DNA from: a virus | Virus record (IMG/VR): IMGVR_UViG_3300047476_001657 | Span: 1-64,000 of that record | Reading direction: 5' to 3' (one strand) | Length of the DNA: 64,000 nucleotides | In this document: in pieces, positions 3-34,433 of the stretch | Numbering within the stretch: the stretch's first letter is position 1 | Layout: each line of letters starts with the position of its first letter | Notes under the pieces: model-generated | What the model saw: only the letters and a program-made list of their open reading frames with translations | Told to the model about the DNA's origin: nothing | Databases searched by the model: none | Translations under genes and position numbers: made by a program

Positions 3-1175
3 TTAACTGAAACAAACTTAACAAGATTAATAAAAAGAGTTATTTCTGAAGAATTAAAAAATAAAAAAATATCAATTAATAGTAAAAAAACTGTTGATGA
101 AAATATATTAAACAAACTTAAAAGTGCGGCTAGTAGTAAGATTATTAGTCCATTAGCTAAAACAGCAAAGAATAATCTAAGTAATATAACTAAATTAAAT
201 AGTACAACAGACGACTTTATTAAAAAAGTTGTTCCAAGTAATCTTGACCCAACAGGACAATTTATTAAGTCAGCATCTGGAAAGTTAATTCCTATAACTC
301 AATTAGATGATGTTTTAAAACATATAAAACAAGGTGGAAATATTGACGATGTTGCAAAATATTTACCAGGTAAATTGGCTGATGGTAAAGATTTCAGATC
401 CACTTTACAACAACAATTGTCAAAAAATGTACCTCAAAATGTTGTTAAAAATAATTTAAATAACCTATCAAAAATAGGTAGTACTACTGATAACTTTATT
501 AATGATGTGGTATCTAAAAATCTTGACCCAACTGGAAAATTTATTAAATCAGCATCTGGTAAATTAATTCCATTAACTCAACTAGATGATGTTCTTAAAT
601 ATGTAAAACAAGGTGGAAATATTGATGATGTTGCAAACTACTTACCGAGTAAATTAGCTGATGGTAAAGATTTTAGATCTACTTTGCAACAACAATTGTC
701 AAAAAAACAAGTGGGAAATGCAGTAAAGGCAACTGTTAAAAATGTAGATTTTGATTCATTAAGAAATCAATTCAGATTACCTAATTGTAAAAGTGGAAAC
801 TTTTGTGATTATGATTCAAGTTTAAAAAGAATTATGAATATCATTCCAAGTAATACTAAATTTATTCCATCTGAAGTTAAAGTTCTACAAAAAACAAGAC
901 AGAATTTTATAGGTAGAGATGGTTTACCTGCATTTAGAGATGTAATTGAAGTAGAATTGAAAAATGGTAAAAGAACATTATTTTACTCGTCTTCTGGTTC
1001 GAATTTGGAAACAACCGGAAAAAAAGCTGGTGAATGGTTTATAATACCAGGATGGGCTGATGATGGGTGGTTTTTCAAAACTCATGAAAGTGTGGCCTTG
1101 ACTAAAGGTGGAAATCAGTACCTAACTGACATGGCTAAATTTCTTGAAATGAATGGGATTGGTGCTCTAGGATAA
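3..1175 (+). CDS. Tagged tandem-repeat protein, 5' end outside the window
   Basis: The frame is open from base 3 to the stop at 1173-1175, so the gene begins before the window; a shorter reading from an internal TTG at 375 would cut through the repeat and is not credible. The first visible residues are LTETNLTRLIKRVISE, the tag-like sequence seen on several other proteins here. Two copies of a 93-residue repeat follow (DNA period 279 bases), each containing NLDPTG, SASGKLIP, QGGNIDDV and DGKDFRSTLQQQL. The unique C-terminal part of about 150 residues has a Cys pair (LPNCKSGNFCDYD) and a beta-rich stretch ending in GGNQYLTDMAKFLEMNG. I do not recognise the family or function. A shared bidirectional terminator separates it from the convergent gene. 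Its tag suggests a head-internal protein, by inference only. Confidence 0.75.
   Translation, partial: LTETNLTRLIKRVISEELKNKKISINSKKTVDENILNKLKSAASSKIISPLAKTAKNNLSNITKLNSTTDDFIKKVVPSNLDPTGQFIKSASGKLIPITQLDDVLKHIKQGGNIDDVAKYLPGKLADGKDFRSTLQQQLSKNVPQNVVKNNLNNLSKIGSTTDNFINDVVSKNLDPTGKFIKSASGKLIPLTQLDDVLKYVKQGGNIDDVANYLPSKLADGKDFRSTLQQQLSKKQVGNAVKATVKNVDFDSLRNQFRLPNCKSGNFCDYDSSLKRIMNIIPSNTKFIPSEVKVLQKTRQNFIGRDGLPAFRDVIEVELKNGKRTLFYSSSGSNLETTGKKAGEWFIIPGWADDGWFFKTHESVALTKGGNQYLTDMAKFLEMNGIGALG
171..708 (+). repeat. Two-copy coding tandem repeat, period 279 bases
   Basis: Copy 1 spans about 171-429 and copy 2 about 450-708; landmarks such as TCTTGACCC recur exactly 279 bases apart (242 and 521). 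The copies differ mostly at synonymous or conservative positions, so the duplication is under protein-level constraint and not brand new. It encodes two 93-residue units. Confidence 0.85.
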
Positions 1176-1208: not shown

Positions 1209-1487
1209 TTAGAATTTTAAGTCCAAATAAAGTAAAGTTTGAACAACTTCATTCCAATCTTTATTTTTAATTGCTTTTTTTAATCTATTTTTAACAATAT
1301 CTATTTTTTTAGTTATTTTACCTGATAATTCTCCTGAAGAATCATCTAATTGTACATCTTCATCGTCACCTAATTGTGGATATAAATTTTCAATATCACT
1401 CGAACCATAAATTCTCTCATTTTCACTAACAACTTTTTTTACAATATTGGTCAAATCTTTTTCAGTTAATCTTACTATTTTTTTCAT
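1209..1487 (-). CDS. Small acidic protein with N-terminal LTE tag
   Basis: A 92-residue protein of unknown function. Residues 1-24 (MKKIVRLTEKDLTNIVKKVV, then SENE) are the clearest example of the tag motif in this window: a basic start, LTE, then an amphipathic helix ending in Glu. A Asp/Glu-rich stretch follows (LGDDEDVQLDDSSGEL), then a basic helical C-terminus (KNRLKKAIKNKDWNEVVQTLLYLDL). The acidic-then-helical makeup would fit a prohead core or internal protein, but nothing identifies it. The ATG at 1487 lies 15 bases after a late-type ATATTTAT motif, which supports this start. Confidence 0.65.
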   Translation of the reverse strand: MKKIVRLTEKDLTNIVKKVVSENERIYGSSDIENLYPQLGDDEDVQLDDSSGELSGKITKKIDIVKNRLKKAIKNKDWNEVVQTLLYLDLKF

Positions 1488-1854: not shown

Positions 1855-2454
1855 TTATCTAGGTTTTACCATATTATAGATATATTCAGCAGCTTTATCA
1901 ATATCATCAACACCACTTCTAGTTAGTTGTGTTCTAATTGAATACAACATATATTTAAATTTGGATACTGAAGGATTATTACCATAACCTTTGATTGGTG
2001 GGTATTTTGAATCTAGAAGTCCCTTTTGATTTAATTCTCTAACTTTTCTTACACCAAACTCATCGGCAACTGCTTCATATTTTGCCATTGCTTCAGCAGC
2101 GTCATCCAAAGGAACTTCGTTTAAATAAAGACCCATCATTTTTTCCGCACCATATTTTCTAAATTGATATTGATGAGCTAATTCGTGGAAGATAATAAAA
2201 AGGCCTTGTGTTGCATTATATTGAAAAATATCAGGATTGATAACCAATTTATTATGTAAAGCTAACCCCATAGCACTTGTTAATCTTTCAAACGAAACTT
2301 TTTTACAATCAGTTTTCTCAAATATTGATTTTACCTCATCAATTAGTTCGTCACTTAATTTATATTCATTTTTTAAGGTTTCAAGAAATTCATCTAAACC
2401 TTCAGTAGCTTCTAAAATAAGTTTATATTGTGATTCTGTTATTATTATTTTCAT
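1855..2454 (-). CDS. Tagged zinc metalloprotease (HExxH)
   Basis: A 199-residue protein. H90-E91-L-A-H94 in FIIFHELAHQ is a gluzincin-type zinc site, and E127 in YEAVADEFG is a plausible third ligand, as in small phage and mobile-element metallopeptidases. The first 19 residues (MKIIITESQYKLILEATEG) are a tag-like ITE sequence followed by a helix. There is no signal peptide or membrane segment. The start overlaps the stop of the upstream gene by one base (coupled translation). The substrate is unknown: it could act in head maturation, as a packaged protease delivered to the host, or against a host target. The zincin fold call is fairly sure; the role is not. Confidence 0.75.
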   Translation of the reverse strand: MKIIITESQYKLILEATEGLDEFLETLKNEYKLSDELIDEVKSIFEKTDCKKVSFERLTSAMGLALHNKLVINPDIFQYNATQGLFIIFHELAHQYQFRKYGAEKMMGLYLNEVPLDDAAEAMAKYEAVADEFGVRKVRELNQKGLLDSKYPPIKGYGNNPSVSKFKYMLYSIRTQLTRSGVDDIDKAAEYIYNMVKPR

Positions 2455-3575
2455 TATATTACGTATATTTGTCTTGGCATAGCTTGGAACTTTTTAACTT
2501 TGTTCAAGTTTTCTGCGATTAATGCTTCACGTTCCATAACTTTTTCAGGTCTTAATCTAGTTAATCTACCTTCAGCACCTATCAATTCTTCAACTAATTT
2601 GGTTTTTTCATCTTTGCCTTCAGTAGCAAGAGATTGGTAGTCCATAGTTAACTCACTGTCAGGTGTCTTGATGTTTCCACTGAATTTACCTCTTACTTTT
2701 GCTAAAGTTTCTTTTGCTGATGCGAAGAACCACTTACGTACCCATATTTGAGCTGGGTTATTTAAATCAACCCAACTTATTTTTTCAAATGGAACATCAG
2801 ATGGTAATCTAATAATGTCTGGATTGTTCTTTAAACAATCATCTCTATCTGCACCATCAACTTCATAATACCAATACCATACTTTACCTCTCATTAATGT
2901 TGAATTACCGAAATCAAACTTACCACCAGGTGTTTGCATAAGATGTACAGCTTTTTTACCATCAGGTAAGGCTGTAATACGATAAGTCATATCTCCAGCA
3001 ATAATTCTTCTTTGGATGTTGATTTCTTGCATTCTTAATAACATATCAAATGCTGGCATCATAAAATAAGAACCTGAATATCCCATTTGTGAAAAACCAG
3101 CTGGACCACCTAAACCAACACCCCCTAACGCTCCAAATGTCCAAGGGTCAAATAACAAATTGTTAAGTTCAGCTGGAGAAAACCACAATAGTTCATTTAA
3201 TTCTCTACCTGCCGGTATTTCATAAATTTGTTGTCCAGGAACTAATTGGATATAGTCCTTTTTCATTACGGAGTCACCACCAGCTTGTAGTCCAACTATT
3301 TTAGAGTAGGCGTAAGAATATCTTTCCTCAAAGTCAAAACTTTTTGTTATGAATGCTTTAGATAATGATTGTGTATCTAAATTTAGATTGTAAAGTGATG
3401 TCCATTGGGATTCAATTAACCAATCTTGAACATATTGTGAATAGTCTTCGATAGCTAATTCTAAAAGAGAGTCTAATTGTTCATCTTCCAATTCAATACT
3501 TCTAAGTGGTGCACCCAAAGTGTGTTTTAGTTTAGTATATAAATTGGTTCTGTCTGGTTCAGGAATTATTGACAT
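2454..3575 (-). CDS. Neck / head-completion-like structural protein (gp13-like N-terminus)
   Basis: 373 residues. The N-terminal region (YTKLKHTLGAPLRSIELEDE, then QLDSLLELAIEDYSQYV) has the pattern of T4-type neck proteins of marine phages: a helix, LGxPxxxIEL, then DEQLDxxxxxAxxDY. The middle is Gly/Met-rich (TFGALGGVGLGGPAGFSQMG, residues about 147-166). The C-terminus is helical (LVEELIGAEGRLTRLRPEKV). Neck proteins close the filled head and give the platform for the tail. The gene lies in a leftward block away from the sheath genes, unlike T4. A late-type motif 15 bases upstream supports ATG 3575. The structural role is likely; exact equivalence to gp13 is uncertain. Confidence 0.55.
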   Translation of the reverse strand: MSIIPEPDRTNLYTKLKHTLGAPLRSIELEDEQLDSLLELAIEDYSQYVQDWLIESQWTSLYNLNLDTQSLSKAFITKSFDFEERYSYAYSKIVGLQAGGDSVMKKDYIQLVPGQQIYEIPAGRELNELLWFSPAELNNLLFDPWTFGALGGVGLGGPAGFSQMGYSGSYFMMPAFDMLLRMQEINIQRRIIAGDMTYRITALPDGKKAVHLMQTPGGKFDFGNSTLMRGKVWYWYYEVDGADRDDCLKNNPDIIRLPSDVPFEKISWVDLNNPAQIWVRKWFFASAKETLAKVRGKFSGNIKTPDSELTMDYQSLATEGKDEKTKLVEELIGAEGRLTRLRPEKVMEREALIAENLNKVKKFQAMPRQIYVI

Positions 3576-3590
3576 AGTTATTTTTTATAT

Positions 3591-3598
3591 ATAAATAT
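3591..3598 (-). promoter_or_regulatory. ATATTTAT late-promoter-like motif
   Basis: Minus-strand ATATTTAT ending 15 bases before the ATG at 3575; it touches the stop codon region of the upstream gene. Confidence 0.45.
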
Positions 3599-6333
3599 TA
3601 CCAACAATCAATCTCTTTAAAATCACCTACTTTTATTGGTTGTGTATTTAGTTCAAGTTCACTACTTTCCGTATCATAGATATATGAGGTAACATTTTTA
3701 TCTACAATTTTGAAACGAATACTTAATCTACTTTCAGCACAAGTTTTTTGTCCTTTATTTGACCAATAAAGTTTTATGTGTTTGATTGGAACTACAACAT
3801 TATTTTCAAAGAAAATACCTGCTAAGTTGTTGGTTACATCTTCTAAAAACTTTACAGCAATTGGATGGTCAAAAAGTTCTAAATGTAAATAATCGATGAT
3901 ATCGTTATAAACATCTAAATGTGTTTCTTTAATTTTTTGAATTGTTTTACTTTGTTTGAAAATTGAGAAAAACTCAGATAAATAACTATCTACAGCAGTA
4001 TCCATCATTTTCACTTCAAACAAATCTCCATTTTCAAATATTTTTTTACCATTATAGTAAAAATCACTTGTTGCTTTCAAATCCGCTTTTATTGGATTTG
4101 TTTGTCGCATATTATTGGTAATACATCCTATTAAATCGTTAACAACTTCAGTTAGACCTTTTTGACCACTTTTGACTAATTCAACTATTTCTACAAAATT
4201 ACGTTTTTCAAACTTATCACACTTATATTTTAACTCTAATGAAGTTTGATATTTTTGCATATAAGGTCCTACTAAACTTGACTCGTAATTTGAGTACGCT
4301 TTTTCTCTAACTTTAGTCAAAAATTTGTCAAGATTTTCTGTTTTAATGTCAGATTGGTTTTTTAATCTTGCCAATCTTTTTTCAGTTTCGGTATTATCAA
4401 AAGTTGGGTTAGTGATAAACGAACCAATTGTTTTAATAAAATTACCAGGTAAGTCGTTTTTAAGTGCTAATGATATAATTTTATAAACAATACCTCTACC
4501 AAAAACCATATTTCTAGCTTGGCCTTTATCCTTTAATCTTGATGACATTTGCGGGTAATAAAAGTTAATAATAATGTCAATTGCATTAATAATCTCTTGT
4601 TTTTCATCACCACTTATATTATCAATTACCCTTTGAAGTTGACAATAAACGTTGTCCTCTTTTTTGTAACTACAAAGTTGACTAATTAAATTATCTTCTT
4701 TTTGAAAGTAGATAGCTTCTAAAATATTCTTTTGTGTTTCAGTAATCAAAATTGTTTTTTTAATTTTTGATTCTGTAACCAATTTATTTAATCTTAAAGA
4801 TGATGATTTGAACTTAACATCACTTGTTTTGAAAACATATGAATATCTATTTAATGATTGACTACCCTCATCTTTAATTTCCACCTTGTCAAAATCAAAG
4901 AATATATAGTTATCTTTGTTATCAATAAAAGCAAATATTTGAATATTTTCAGGTTTGTATTTGTTTTTACTTTTGAATATGTATGTAGTTTCACCATCTA
5001 TTTCGGTCTCAAATAAATCTCTTGTTGGTTTTACTTGAACAAACTTTGCAACTCCATTTTTGGTTACCATCATATCTTGACCATTATACTTATCTCTAGT
5101 ATCACCATCACAATATCTTGTAATATCCAAATCTTTGTATTTTGTATTTAATAGTTCTATTGCTAAGTTTTCACGATTTGAACCGCTATCTAATGTTCCT
5201 TTTTTAGTTTGGGGATTCATTATTATATCGGCTAAAGTTTTTGTAAACTTACCATCTTCACCAAATAAGAGATTTTTCATTCGGTTCATCCAAGTACCAA
5301 AATCCAAATTGTCTCTATTATATTTTTCAAAAAACTCTAATATTTTATCACTAATTCTTGTGTTAGCATCAAACCAATTCACAACTGACCATTCACCAAC
5401 ACCACCCCTTTGACTTACAGTATATTTCCCACCAATTACACCAAAGTTTGTTTTACAATCATTCGTATCAATTTTACCATAACAAGGAGATTCAATATGT
5501 TTATCAGGAGAATAATTTGTGATAATTTCTGGTGAACATTTTGGATATACCGCTTTCAACATTTTTTGAACAAATTTGTAGTTAACCCTACCATTATCTA
5601 ATAAGGGTTCAACTTGTTCAGTTATTACTTTTTTAGAAGTAACAGATTCTTTTAATTTAGATTTTAGTTTTAATTTGAATACCTCGTCAACATATTCCCA
5701 ATTTACAACATCCCAAAACTTTTTAATATATTCGTCTCTTTTGTTTTGATATTCCAAATAATAAGCATGTTCCCATAAATCTAATCCTAATAACGGAAAA
5801 CCACCACCATCAATATCATTCATTTGTGGATTATCTTGATTTGGGGTTGTCATAATTTTTAATCTATTATTTGGTGTTAGAACTAACCAAGCCCAACCTG
5901 AACCAAATCTGTCCATTGCTTTTTCGGTAAACTCTTTCTTAAAGTTGTTATACGAACCAAACTCCTTATCAATTTTGGTTAGTATTTCACCTTTAATATT
6001 TTGTTTTTCAGGTGATAACATTTTCCAAAATAATGAATGGTTGTAAGCTCCACCACCATTATTTCTTATTGTTTTTGGGAATCTTGTAATAGATTTAATT
6101 ATATCTTCCAATTCTACATTACCATAATCTTTTTTGGATAAAGCATCGTTCAACTTTTTAACATAACCCTTGTAGTGTTTGTTATAGTGAACATCCATTG
6201 TTTTTTCATCAATGAATCTGGTTAACGAATCATAACCATATGGTAATTTATCAATACCAATTTTCTTGGCTTCAGTTAATAAACTTTCACCTATTAATAT
6301 AGTTTCTTTAAGTAATTCTAGTTTCTTTTCCAT
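3598..6333 (-). CDS. Mn superoxide dismutase-nuclease polyprotein with LTE/ITE tags at domain junctions
   Basis: 911 residues in three modules. Residues 1-26 end in SLLTEAKK. Residues 27-222 are a complete Fe/Mn SOD: LPYGYDSL, metal ligands H49, H99 (YNHSLFW), D185 and H189 (LDLWEHAYY), gateway Y57. Gly in NNGGGAYNH and N165-Q166-D-N-P point to the Mn (SodA) type. After KVITEQ (236-240), residues about 380-440 look like a PD-(D/E)XK nuclease: E388, D420 in NGQDMM, Q433-V-K435. After LVTES (518-522) and LITET (529-533), the third module contains D751, D757 and FEVK (772-775), possibly a second nuclease core. Bacterial SodA is about 200 residues, so over 700 residues are extra. I infer proteolytic release of packaged enzymes. 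The SOD call is near certain, the nuclease likely, processing untested. Confidence 0.85.
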   Translation of the reverse strand: MEKKLELLKETILIGESLLTEAKKIGIDKLPYGYDSLTRFIDEKTMDVHYNKHYKGYVKKLNDALSKKDYGNVELEDIIKSITRFPKTIRNNGGGAYNHSLFWKMLSPEKQNIKGEILTKIDKEFGSYNNFKKEFTEKAMDRFGSGWAWLVLTPNNRLKIMTTPNQDNPQMNDIDGGGFPLLGLDLWEHAYYLEYQNKRDEYIKKFWDVVNWEYVDEVFKLKLKSKLKESVTSKKVITEQVEPLLDNGRVNYKFVQKMLKAVYPKCSPEIITNYSPDKHIESPCYGKIDTNDCKTNFGVIGGKYTVSQRGGVGEWSVVNWFDANTRISDKILEFFEKYNRDNLDFGTWMNRMKNLLFGEDGKFTKTLADIIMNPQTKKGTLDSGSNRENLAIELLNTKYKDLDITRYCDGDTRDKYNGQDMMVTKNGVAKFVQVKPTRDLFETEIDGETTYIFKSKNKYKPENIQIFAFIDNKDNYIFFDFDKVEIKDEGSQSLNRYSYVFKTSDVKFKSSSLRLNKLVTESKIKKTILITETQKNILEAIYFQKEDNLISQLCSYKKEDNVYCQLQRVIDNISGDEKQEIINAIDIIINFYYPQMSSRLKDKGQARNMVFGRGIVYKIISLALKNDLPGNFIKTIGSFITNPTFDNTETEKRLARLKNQSDIKTENLDKFLTKVREKAYSNYESSLVGPYMQKYQTSLELKYKCDKFEKRNFVEIVELVKSGQKGLTEVVNDLIGCITNNMRQTNPIKADLKATSDFYYNGKKIFENGDLFEVKMMDTAVDSYLSEFFSIFKQSKTIQKIKETHLDVYNDIIDYLHLELFDHPIAVKFLEDVTNNLAGIFFENNVVVPIKHIKLYWSNKGQKTCAESRLSIRFKIVDKNVTSYIYDTESSELELNTQPIKVGDFKEIDCW

Positions 6334-6349
6334 AAGATATAAATATCAT

Positions 6350-6357
6350 ATAAATAT
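6350..6357 (-). promoter_or_regulatory. ATATTTAT late-promoter-like motif (double)
   Basis: Minus-strand ATATTTAT ends 16 bases before the ATG at 6333. A second exact copy at 6339-6346 ends 5 bases before it. Both common spacings of this motif therefore occur at one gene. Confidence 0.45.
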
Positions 6358-32431: not shown

Positions 32432-33436
32432 ATGGCAATTAAGAAAAACGACTTTAGTAGTATAAAGAAGAAATTCTCGACTTCTGCTAAATACAAACCC
32501 CAAAGATACTTTGACTTGGGTACTGAATTTTTGGATGCTGTTGGATTACCAGGACCTGCAATAGGACATTTGAATATGTTATTGGGACACTCTGATACTG
32601 GTAAAACTACAGCACTTATTAAAACTGCTGTTGATGCTCAAAGAAAAGGTATCTTACCTGTTTTTATCATCACAGAACAAAAATGGAGTTTTGAACACGC
32701 AAAACTTATGGGACTACAATGTGAAGAAGTTGTAGATGAAGAAACTGGTGAAATGGATTGGGATGGTTTCTATTTATTCAACAACTCGTTTGAATATATC
32801 GAACAAATTACCGATTATATCAATGACTTATTAGATGCACAAGAGAAAGGAGATTTGGAATACAGTTTATGTTTTATGTGGGATTCTGTTGGTTCAGTTC
32901 CTTGTAAAATGACATATGAAGGTAAAGGTGGTAAACAACACAATGCTTCAGTCCTTGCTGATAAGATTGGTATGGGTATCAATCAAAGAATCTCAGGTAG
33001 TAGAAAAGCTGAATCCAAGTTTGAAAATACTTTAATTATTGTAAACCAACCTTGGGTAGAATTACCTGATAATCCATTTGGACAACCAAAGATTAAAGCA
33101 AAAGGTGGTGAAGCAATTTGGTTGAACTCTTCTTTGGTATTTTTGTTTGGTAATCAAAAAGGTGCTGGTACAACTAAGATTACAGCTACCAAAGACAAAA
33201 GAACTGTTAAGTTTGCAAGTAGAACAAAAGTATCTGTATTGAAAAACCACATTAATGGTTTGGGTTATGACGATGGTAAAATTATTGTTACCCCTCATGG
33301 ATTCTTATCAGGGAAAGATGCTGCTGAAGAAAAATCTTCTATTGAAAAATATAAGAAAGAGTATGCTGAATATTGGAAAGAATTGTTAGGTTTGGAAGGA
33401 GATTTTGATTTAAAAGAAGAAAAAGAATATGAATAA
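32432..33436 (+). CDS. uvsX: UvsX/RecA-like recombinase
   Basis: 334 residues. Walker A is GHSDTGKTT (52-60); the Walker B strand is SLCFMWDSVGS (Asp about 151); the adjacent region has QHNASVLADKIGMGINQRIS; and NTLIIVNQPWVELPDNPFGQ then KAKGGEAIWLNSSLVFLFG matches the L2 and core strands of UvsX/RecA. The acidic C-terminal tail (FDLKEEKEYE) is typical. It forms filaments on ssDNA and drives strand exchange for recombination-dependent replication and repair. The next gene overlaps its last 8 bases, so UvsX and the methyltransferase are translationally coupled. Confidence 0.92.
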   Translation: MAIKKNDFSSIKKKFSTSAKYKPQRYFDLGTEFLDAVGLPGPAIGHLNMLLGHSDTGKTTALIKTAVDAQRKGILPVFIITEQKWSFEHAKLMGLQCEEVVDEETGEMDWDGFYLFNNSFEYIEQITDYINDLLDAQEKGDLEYSLCFMWDSVGSVPCKMTYEGKGGKQHNASVLADKIGMGINQRISGSRKAESKFENTLIIVNQPWVELPDNPFGQPKIKAKGGEAIWLNSSLVFLFGNQKGAGTTKITATKDKRTVKFASRTKVSVLKNHINGLGYDDGKIIVTPHGFLSGKDAAEEKSSIEKYKKEYAEYWKELLGLEGDFDLKEEKEYE

Positions 33437-34433
33437 GTTAAAAGTTATATCACTATTTTCAGGTTATGGTACACAAGAATTGGCACTAAAATATATTGGT
33501 GTTGATTTTGAGAATGTTGCAAATTGTGACATACTTAAAACTGCGAATATTGCTTATGATTCTTTACACGAAACGACAATGGGTAACTTGGGGGACATCT
33601 CTAAAGTAAATGAGAATGAGTTCCCCCAATGTGACCTACTTACATACTCATTTCCTTGTCAAGACATTTCAATATCAGGTATTCAGAAGGGTATTCAAAA
33701 AGGTACAAGAAGTGGTTTGTTATATGAGGTTGAAAGAATCTTAACGAAGAATCAACCCAAGTATCTTTTGATGGAGAATGTTAAGAACTTGGTATCTCAT
33801 AACCACATTGATAACTTCAAAGCACATATTTCATTCTTAAATGAGTTAGGATATGGTTGTTCTTGGCAAGTATTAAATGGTGCTGACTATGGATGTCCAC
33901 AAAACAGAGAAAGAGTTTTTATGATGTCTGTTTATGGGATGACAAATGAAGAAGTGGAAACTAAAATGCTCAATGTTAATAGGTACAAAAAGGATAGAGT
34001 ACCAATGAGACCATTCATAGAAAATGTTGTCATAGACGACTTATTTATTGAATGTGAGGTTACACCTAACAAACCAAAAAAAGATAGTGTGTGCAAACTT
34101 GTGGCAAGGAGAAACGATGTAAGTTACGACCAAGCAAGACGTATATATTCTATTGATGGTTGTTCACCTTGTTTAACAACCACTGGTTCACCACAAATTA
34201 TTGTTGATGGAAGAATAAGAAGTATAACAGGAAGAGAAGCTTACAGATTTATGGGTGTTAGAGAAGAAGATATTGATTTATTGTTATCAACAAACTTGAC
34301 AATAAAGAATCACGTTGCTTTGGCAGGTAACTCCATTTGTGTTCCTGTCATGGAAGCAATCTTTACAGAGTTCTTAGGTGAGTATATCACAGAAACAAAA
34401 AAATCGTTCACACAATTAAGTTTATTTAAATGA
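33429..34433 (+). CDS. DNA (cytosine-5) methyltransferase
   Basis: 334 residues with all main C5-methylase motifs in order: SAM-binding ISLFSGYGTQELAL (8-20), catalytic FPCQD with C77, ENVKNL (116-121), QNRERVF (158-164), then a target-recognition region and GREAYRFMGV and AGNSICVPVMEAIF at the end. It transfers a methyl group to cytosine in a specific sequence that cannot be read from here. No restriction partner lies beside it, so it is a solitary enzyme, most simply one that protects phage DNA against host restriction. It overlaps uvsX (8 bases) and the exonuclease gene (4 bases), which places it inside the replication operon. Confidence 0.93.
   Translation: MNKLKVISLFSGYGTQELALKYIGVDFENVANCDILKTANIAYDSLHETTMGNLGDISKVNENEFPQCDLLTYSFPCQDISISGIQKGIQKGTRSGLLYEVERILTKNQPKYLLMENVKNLVSHNHIDNFKAHISFLNELGYGCSWQVLNGADYGCPQNRERVFMMSVYGMTNEEVETKMLNVNRYKKDRVPMRPFIENVVIDDLFIECEVTPNKPKKDSVCKLVARRNDVSYDQARRIYSIDGCSPCLTTTGSPQIIVDGRIRSITGREAYRFMGVREEDIDLLLSTNLTIKNHVALAGNSICVPVMEAIFTEFLGEYITETKKSFTQLSLFK

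What the first reader, a model, noticed from the sequence alone, without database searches (positions are those of the whole stretch)
3598..6333. Superoxide dismutase fused to nuclease modules in one phage polyprotein with protease-like sites at each junction
Seen: a complete Mn-type SOD (ligands H49, H99, D185, H189) preceded by SLLTEAKK, then KVITEQ, then a PD-(D/E)XK-like core, then LVTES and LITET, then a third module. The (L/I)-T-E triplets fall only at the module borders I would draw. Known: T4 prohead protease gp21 cuts after Glu in (L/I)-x-E sites, and the major capsid protein is cut at FLTE/A. Inference: the protein is packaged in the prohead as one chain and cut into free SOD and nucleases that enter the host with the DNA. 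SOD could blunt oxidative defence or damage on entry, and the nuclease could attack host DNA. I know of no described phage system of this form.
Basis: partly seen in the sequence, partly recalled or inferred. Interest (0 to 1): 0.9.

Follow-up and report, generated by a model that had tools for sequence, protein, structure and literature searches.

The report
Phage packaged-enzyme polyprotein with capsid tags
A T4-like freshwater phage encodes one long protein that strings a superoxide dismutase and two further enzyme-like domains together behind repeated peptide tags, which look like T4's "pack me into the capsid and cut here" signals, so the phage probably ships several enzymes inside its head and releases them by cutting.

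Summary
The 911-residue ORF is real: Fe/Mn superoxide dismutase (SOD), then a PD-(D/E)XK nuclease-like domain with an Hjc-like fold, then a third domain with a weaker nuclease-like motif. Each domain follows a short tag carrying (L/I)-x-E, the T4 gp21 prohead-protease motif. "(L/I)TE only at borders" is slightly wrong: one more copy lies inside domain 3 (727-729).
In 43 distinct relatives the SOD border is invariant L/I at P3 and E at P1, while P2 takes eight residues. After the SOD, two (L/I/V)-x-E sites recur about 10 residues apart. Stand-alone versions of domains 2 and 3 exist, with the tag at their N-terminus. SODs of one clade are joined to different C-terminal domains, so the tags mark exchange points. 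The 322-kb collinear relative G006 puts similar tags on about 30 mostly unrelated small proteins and encodes a gp21-type protease and a gp23-type capsid protein. The SOD gene is followed by the gp13 neck gene in 75/75 relatives.
Best reading: a modular polyprotein of T4-type internal (ejection) proteins, packaged and cut in the prohead. Packaging, cutting and ejection are inferred; there is no proteomics. The protease itself lies outside this 93-kb fragment.

The parts
3598..6333 (-). Whole polyprotein gene, 911 aa: tag1-SOD-tag2-nuclease-tag3-domain 3
6271..6333 (-). Tag 1 (residues 1-21) MEKKLELLKETILIGESLLTE|A; predicted cut after E21
   Evidence: 43 distinct SOD borders: P4 F/L/I, P3 I22/L21, P2 8 residues, P1 E 43/43; T4 sites for comparison
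5668..6270 (-). Fe/Mn superoxide dismutase (residues 22-222), ligands H49 H99 D185 H189
   Evidence: Pfam, PDB relatives, residues
5617..5667 (-). Tag 2 (residues 223-239) LKSKLKE|SVTSKKVITE|Q; two sites 10 residues apart
   Evidence: 36 distinct post-SOD borders, 87 [LIV]xE against 42.6 in shuffles, max 60
4789..5616 (-). Domain 2 (residues about 240-515), PD-(D/E)XK nuclease-like; catalytic pattern E...GxD...QxK
   Evidence: alignment A1, AF2 pLDDT 89.9, Foldseek Hjc resolvases / I-Ssp6803I prob 0.97-1.00
4714..4788 (-). Tag 3 (residues 516-540) NKLVTE|SKIKKTILITE|TQKNILE|A; like the N-terminal tag of stand-alone genes
   Evidence: L054 stand-alone domain 3 begins MKIIITEEQYTNIIQ; window gene 1855-2454 begins MKIIITESQYKLILEA
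3601..4713 (-). Domain 3 (residues 541-911); invariant KxD...ExK suggests but does not prove a second PD-(D/E)XK domain
   Evidence: alignment A2; AF2 pLDDT 76, no fold match
6338..6356 (-). Two TATTTATA elements, 4 and 15 nt before the start codon (read on the - strand); same element precedes gp13 and several structural genes
2454..3575 (-). gp13-type head-tail adaptor (neck) gene, next downstream, same strand; conserved neighbour
   Evidence: phrog_211 3.8e-10; follows the SOD gene in 75/75 loci
1855..2454 (-). Separate tagged gene (MKIIITESQYKLILEA) with HELAH zincin-like motif
1209..1487 (-). Separate gene with type-A tag MKKIVRLTEKDLTNIVKKVVSE|N; homologue in G006 keeps tag and body

Best explanation
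The gene encodes a polyprotein of T4-type internal (ejection) proteins. Each enzyme domain keeps in front of it the short capsid-targeting tag that it carried as a separate gene. The chain is made with the virion structural proteins, is drawn into the prohead core by the tag(s), and is cut after Glu at (L/I)-x-E sites by the phage's gp21-type prohead protease. This frees an SOD that starts almost at its ancestral start residue, a PD-(D/E)XK nuclease and a third domain. These enter the next host with the DNA; there the SOD would lower superoxide at entry and the nuclease(s) would attack host DNA that lacks the phage's own methylation. Shown by sequence: domains, tags, conservation at borders, tagged stand-alone homologues, domain swapping, protease and capsid genes in close relatives, neck-gene neighbourhood. 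Inferred: packaging, cutting, ejection, role in the host.
For: SOD border in 43 distinct sequences: P3 L/I and P1 E invariant, P2 any of 8 residues, P4 F/L/I. This is the L/I-X-E rule of gp21 (PMC9026906) and includes the positions (7 targeting; 8 and 10 processing) mapped in the T4 IPIII tag (PMC9026906). T4's own sites read here: FIAE|A, TITE|A, LITE|L, FLTE|A. Border sites after the SOD: 2.42 per 45 aa against 0.41 in the SOD interior. Bacterial SODs have no such extension. The residue after the cut is M in 38/43, i.e. about the ancestral SOD start. Tagged stand-alone domain 2 (G006 118104-119060, between protease and scaffold genes; L031) and domain 3 (L054). C-terminal domains exchanged at the tag. 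Tags in G006: 36 [LI]TE in residues 3-40 against 8.6 shuffled; 22 class A/B tag genes there with mostly unrelated bodies. S77 protease with conserved H85/S140 equivalents and gp23-type capsid protein with LINE|A in G004, G006, G013. 59 of 76 genes of this record have homologues in G006, in collinear order. gp13 neighbour 75/75. Upstream element shared with structural genes; enriched before tagged genes 17/30 against 33/294.
Against: No proteomics. The record is a fragment without protease or capsid genes. Enrichment of N-terminal LTE is strong only in G006, weak in G004 and G013. 51 of 81 relatives begin with a metallopeptidase-like domain and have no N-terminal tag, so targeting of those would need an internal tag, for which T4 gives no precedent. 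Bare (L/I)xE triplets also occur inside domains. Some tagged proteins of G006 match endolysin or peptidoglycan-binding families, not obvious head cargo. A packaged nuclease must be kept off the phage genome. Start codons were chosen by rule, not by experiment.
Confidence: 0.72

Rival explanations
1. Multi-enzyme protein that works uncut in the infected cell: an auxiliary SOD fused to nucleases, with the tags as mere linkers.
For: SOD alone or fused is a well-formed enzyme; phage SODs occur in other T4-like jumbo phages; no cut has been observed.
Against: Linkers do not explain invariant L/I and E with a free residue between them, two spaced sites after the SOD, similar tags starting about 30 mostly unrelated proteins, or the fixed place in front of the neck gene.
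Confidence: 0.13
2. The tags are a localisation or assembly signal of another kind (binding to scaffold, membrane or a phage-made compartment) and are not cut.
For: Class A and B tags are longer than a bare cleavage site and have a conserved amphipathic pattern; the T4 IPIII tag also has separate targeting and processing residues (PMC9026906).
Against: Border sites obey the protease rule position by position, and the capsid protein propeptide of the same phages ends in the same kind of site LINE|A.
Confidence: 0.1
3. Packaged and cut, but the SOD serves the particle (guarding packaged DNA against photo-oxidation in sunlit water) and the nucleases act in DNA packaging or repair, not on the host. 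(A variant of the best explanation: it shares packaging and cutting and differs in the role.)
For: Domain 2 has a Holliday-resolvase-like fold; its tagged stand-alone form lies among head genes in G006.
Against: T4 internal proteins and Alt are ejected (PMC7411985). Chlorovirus PBCV-1 packages both an SOD and restriction endonucleases, and the endonucleases are thought to degrade host DNA (PMC7019647).
Confidence: 0.2
4. The metallopeptidase fused upstream in many relatives (HEW[VI]H motif), or its neighbour gene here, cuts the chain instead of the prohead protease.
For: 51 of 81 relatives carry it in cis; the window has a separate zincin-like gene at 1855-2454.
Against: Many relatives lack it in cis; the sites match the S77 protease rule, and the capsid protein of these phages has the same kind of site.
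Confidence: 0.05

Closest known systems
T4 internal proteins IPI/IPII/IPIII and Alt with capsid targeting sequence (CTS), processed by gp21
   Same: Short N-terminal tag ending in (L/I)-x-E; same P4/P3/P1 pattern (FIAE|A, TITE|A, LITE|L read); varied bodies behind shared tags; T4-like genome with S77 protease in relatives
   Different: Here the cargo is enzymes (SOD, PD-(D/E)XK), several per chain, with tags kept at internal joints; tags are longer, in at least two classes, and far more numerous; packaging not shown
Chlorovirus PBCV-1 packaged Cu/Zn SOD and restriction endonucleases (PMC7019647)
   Same: Works-like: a virus of fresh water that carries SOD and DNA-cutting enzymes in the particle
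   Different: Unrelated virus and unrelated SOD family; separate genes, no polyprotein or prohead-protease tags; SOD packaging there is reported from experiment
phiKZ / SPN3US head ejection proteins cut at S/A-x-E or A-x-E (PMC9026906, PMC5694885)
   Same: Many cargo proteins with propeptides cut after Glu by a gp21-like protease; identical N-termini on diverged proteins
   Different: Other motif (A/S at P3), longer propeptides, no SOD, no multi-enzyme chain described in the passages read
Engineered T4 CTS fusions carrying EcoRI, staphylococcal nuclease, GFP, beta-galactosidase (PMC9026906)
   Same: Foreign enzymes incl. nucleases packaged and delivered by the tag
   Different: Laboratory constructs with one cargo
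Uncultured phage protein A0A6J5L953, 'superoxide dismutase', 501 aa
   Same: Database entry whose model matches domain 2 and which is named SOD: probably the same kind of fusion
   Different: Annotated only as SOD; sequence not inspected here

Membership tests
T4-type internal/ejection protein with CTS | N-terminal propeptide of about 10-20 residues ending in (L/I)-x-E | tested here: met
   Residues 1-21 end LLTE|A; 43 distinct relatives obey P3 L/I, P1 E. Relatives that begin with the metallopeptidase lack it at the N-terminus
T4-type internal/ejection protein with CTS | Genome encodes a gp21-type (S77) prohead protease | tested here: inconclusive
   Absent from this 93-kb fragment, which has no head genes; present with conserved catalytic residues in G004, G006, G013, which carry homologous SOD fusions
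T4-type internal/ejection protein with CTS | Tag shared by several otherwise unrelated proteins of the phage | tested here: met
   Class A 10 and class B 12 genes in G006, bodies unrelated apart from one small paralogous group
T4-type internal/ejection protein with CTS | Present in virions, cut, and ejected into the host | not testable with these tools
   No proteomics held; the PA5oct SOD record bears an 'ESI-MS/MS' note, but so do other genes beside it
Fe/Mn superoxide dismutase | Sod_Fe_N + Sod_Fe_C domains with three His and one Asp ligand | tested here: met
PD-(D/E)XK nuclease (domain 2) | Core fold with catalytic D...(E/Q)xK | tested here: met
   GxD...QxK and upstream E invariant in 20 homologues; model matches Hjc and I-Ssp6803I with prob 0.97-1.00, though no E-value is below 1e-3
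PD-(D/E)XK nuclease (domain 3) | Core fold with catalytic D...(E/Q)xK | tested here: inconclusive
   KxD...ExK invariant in 8 homologues; model of modest confidence, no fold match
Viral polyprotein | One chain cut by a viral protease into separate mature proteins | not testable with these tools
   Sites conserved at the SOD joints, but cutting not observed

The most novel reading that the evidence does not exclude
A large group of T4-like freshwater phages uses a general tag-and-cut packaging system: dozens of genes carry removable capsid tags, and at one conserved locus beside the neck gene the tagged genes have fused into swappable multi-enzyme polyproteins (metallopeptidase, SOD, PD-(D/E)XK nucleases) that are matured in the head and injected together.
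Probability: 0.6. Interest if true: 0.88.

Novelty: new variant of a known kind. Interest (0 to 1): 0.78.

Why it matters
If true, prohead maturation doubles as a cargo-processing step, and a phage can deliver a preset mix of enzymes at entry. The tags would let one find packaged effectors from sequence alone in uncultured phages, most of whose proteins have no assigned role. It would be a bacterial-virus parallel to the SOD and restriction enzymes packaged by chloroviruses, and would open the question of whether host superoxide matters at phage entry to test.

Tried and rejected
A consensus class-A tag as tblastn query against 50,697 phage records found nothing; short queries may be beyond that search, so this is weak. 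Pfam, PHROGs and PDB sequence profiles do not name domains 2 or 3. The third domain gave no fold match, so I do not call it a proven nuclease. Protease and capsid gene were sought in the own record and not found; the nearest evidence comes from relatives. T4 and Flavobacterium phage immuto as yardsticks for N-terminal LTE enrichment: T4 shows none (few tagged genes), immuto a mild rise, so LTE counting is not a general detector. PA5oct SOD (MNDSIKKYISIAE|A) looks tagged and its record says ESI-MS/MS, but unrelated neighbours bear the same note, and the proteome paper is not held. Full-text searches for the tag string and for CTS with SOD found no paper. One call failed on coordinates beyond the window (59), one on a search term (93) and one on the report's format (98). 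Considered and dropped: fusion as an assembly artefact (dozens of independent contigs).

Full report
OBSERVATION. The ORF at 3598-6333 (-) is a single open frame of 911 aa. Residues 27-217 match Sod_Fe_N and Sod_Fe_C far above cut-off, and the best solved relatives are bacterial Mn or Mn/Fe SODs. [LIV]TE occurs at 19-21, 237-239, 519-521, 530-532 and also at 727-729, inside domain 3, so "only at borders" is not exact. Five in 911 is above a shuffled expectation of 0.86. The T4 rule is wider, L/I-X-E (PMC9026906), and gives 17 candidate sites, some inside domains. The count alone is therefore weak and conservation is the real test.

WHERE IT LIES. The window is the first 64 kb of a 93,303-bp linear virus record. 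It holds T4-type tail, neck and replication genes but no portal, prohead protease or capsid gene. 59 of 76 of its genes have homologues, in collinear order, in a 322-kb record, G006. G006 carries an SOD fusion at the matching place, and also an S77 prohead protease and a gp23-type capsid protein. So do G004 and G013. The proteases align with T4 gp21 (34% over 149 aa for G006) with H85 and S140 of T4 conserved (that these two are the catalytic residues is my own knowledge). The capsid proteins of these phages have a site of the expected form, LINE|A, at residue 60.

THE BORDERS BEHAVE LIKE PROTEASE SITES. In 43 distinct SOD N-borders from 81 loci, P4 is F/L/I, P3 is I (22) or L (21), P2 takes eight residues, P1 is E in all, and P1' is M (38) or A (5). 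T4's sites, read from its genome here, are FIAE|A (IPII, IPIII), TITE|A (IPI), LITE|L (Alt) and FLTE|A (gp23). In T4 IPIII, residue 7 (P4) serves targeting and residues 8 (P3) and 10 (P1) serve processing (PMC9026906). Bacterial SODs typically start 7 residues before the LPY motif, so the M after the cut is about the ancestral start. A caveat is that the residues just downstream are also conserved, so the invariant E is not isolated. After the SOD, 36 distinct borders hold 87 [LIV]xE against 42.6 in shuffles (maximum 60), mostly as two sites about 10 residues apart. The density is 2.42 per 45 aa against 0.41 inside the SOD.

THE TAGS COME FROM SEPARATE GENES. A stand-alone domain 2 begins MKITISEGQYKILSE in G006 and lies between the protease gene and the scaffold gene. 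In L031 it is a separate gene beginning MKYIFTESQLDILKNKILINE|D. A stand-alone domain 3 in L054 begins MKIIITEEQYTNIIQ. In the window's chain the sequence before domain 3, KTILITETQKNILEA, is that same kind of tag, now internal. In other relatives a metallopeptidase-like domain (HEW[VI]H) is fused upstream, and the stretch between it and the SOD resembles the N-terminal tag of the others. A tree of the SOD domain needs at least 14 changes of architecture, against a minimum of 7. The C-terminal domain alternates between types 2 and 3 among very similar SODs: L062 and L016 form a starred clade with short branches.

THE TAGS ARE GENOME-WIDE IN THE RELATIVE. In G006, [LI]TE occurs 36 times in residues 3-40 of 302 proteins, against 8.6 in shuffles; Poisson P about 3e-12. 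Class A (MKKxIRLTESDLxxIVKRxIxE) and class B (MKxLITESQ...) cover 22 genes there, whose bodies are unrelated apart from one small paralogous group. A wider pattern finds 31. The own record shows the class A gene 1209-1487 and the class B gene 1855-2454. The enrichment is weak in G004, G013 and T4, so its breadth across the group is not settled.

CONTEXT. The gp13-type neck gene follows the SOD gene on the same strand in 75 of 75 loci, within 44 nt in 72. In the other three (L031, L051, L054) there is room for a further gene; in L031 and L054 I read it and it is tagged. An element TATTTATA about 14 nt before start codons precedes the SOD, gp13, several tail genes, the scaffold gene of G006 and some tagged genes. 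The related ATATTTAT is found before 17 of 30 tagged genes against 33 of 294 others in G006 (P 3e-8), and before 1 of 15 replication-type genes in the own record. I read this as shared late expression; that is inference.

DOMAINS. Domain 2: E...GxD...QxK invariant in 20 homologues, confident model (pLDDT 89.9), Foldseek matches to Hjc resolvases and I-Ssp6803I at probability 0.97-1.00 but E about 0.005-0.02. I call it PD-(D/E)XK with good but not full certainty. Domain 3: invariant KxD...ExK, modest model, no fold match, so it stays an open call. The phage has one C5 and two N6/N4 DNA methyltransferases. Packaged nucleases that spare methylated phage DNA are therefore possible but untested.

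MECHANISM. Most likely: late synthesis, entry into the prohead core by tag, cutting by the gp21-type protease, ejection with the DNA. The first part rests on strong comparative evidence. Packaging and cutting are inferred (about 0.72). The role in the host is weaker (about 0.5). Chlorovirus PBCV-1, which packages an SOD and restriction endonucleases (PMC7019647), shows that the combination makes sense. T4 with CTS-fused EcoRI or staphylococcal nuclease shows that nucleases can be packaged and delivered (PMC9026906).

NOVELTY. Tag-targeted, gp21-cut internal proteins are known from T4. I found no description of multi-enzyme chains with internal tags, of an SOD as such cargo, or of swapping at the tags; full-text searches gave nothing, though the library is partial. 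I file it as a new variant of a known kind.

Noticed in passing
window 33429-34433; record 75100-75966 and 78575-79315: One C5 and two N6/N4 DNA methyltransferases; beside one of them, 75980-76498 (-) has an FEVKSSRF stretch that might be a restriction-type nuclease, with no family match.
   Followed up: partly
start-proximal regions, e.g. 6338-6356, and G006: TATTTATA about 13-17 nt before many start codons (11 of 71 in this record against 0.5 expected; 42 of 302 in G006 against 2.8), mainly structural and tagged genes. It is the reverse complement of the T4 late-promoter box TATAAATA.
   Followed up: partly
L007, L041, L064 and others (51 of 81 loci): A metallopeptidase-like domain (HEW[VI]H motif) is fused upstream of the SOD; no Pfam family names it.
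   Followed up: partly
G006 66050-66868, 87015-87875, 314821-315891: Tagged proteins matching endolysin, GH19 or peptidoglycan-binding families: possible wall-degrading cargo, or a sign that the tag means something else.
   Followed up: no
L082 3977-4525 (Pseudomonas phage PA5oct EST35_0261): SOD annotated as hypothetical protein, beginning MNDSIKKYISIAE|A, ligands kept, in a T4-like jumbo phage with an S77 protease.
   Followed up: partly
window 375-1175: ADGKDFRSTLQQQLSK occurs twice in one 266-aa ORF of unknown function.
   Followed up: no
Flavobacterium phage immuto, L123 1675-2139 and L124 25061-25456: Two genes share the start MKKQILSEQFxRMQxLAGIITES: another candidate packaging tag, in a cultured phage.
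   Followed up: no
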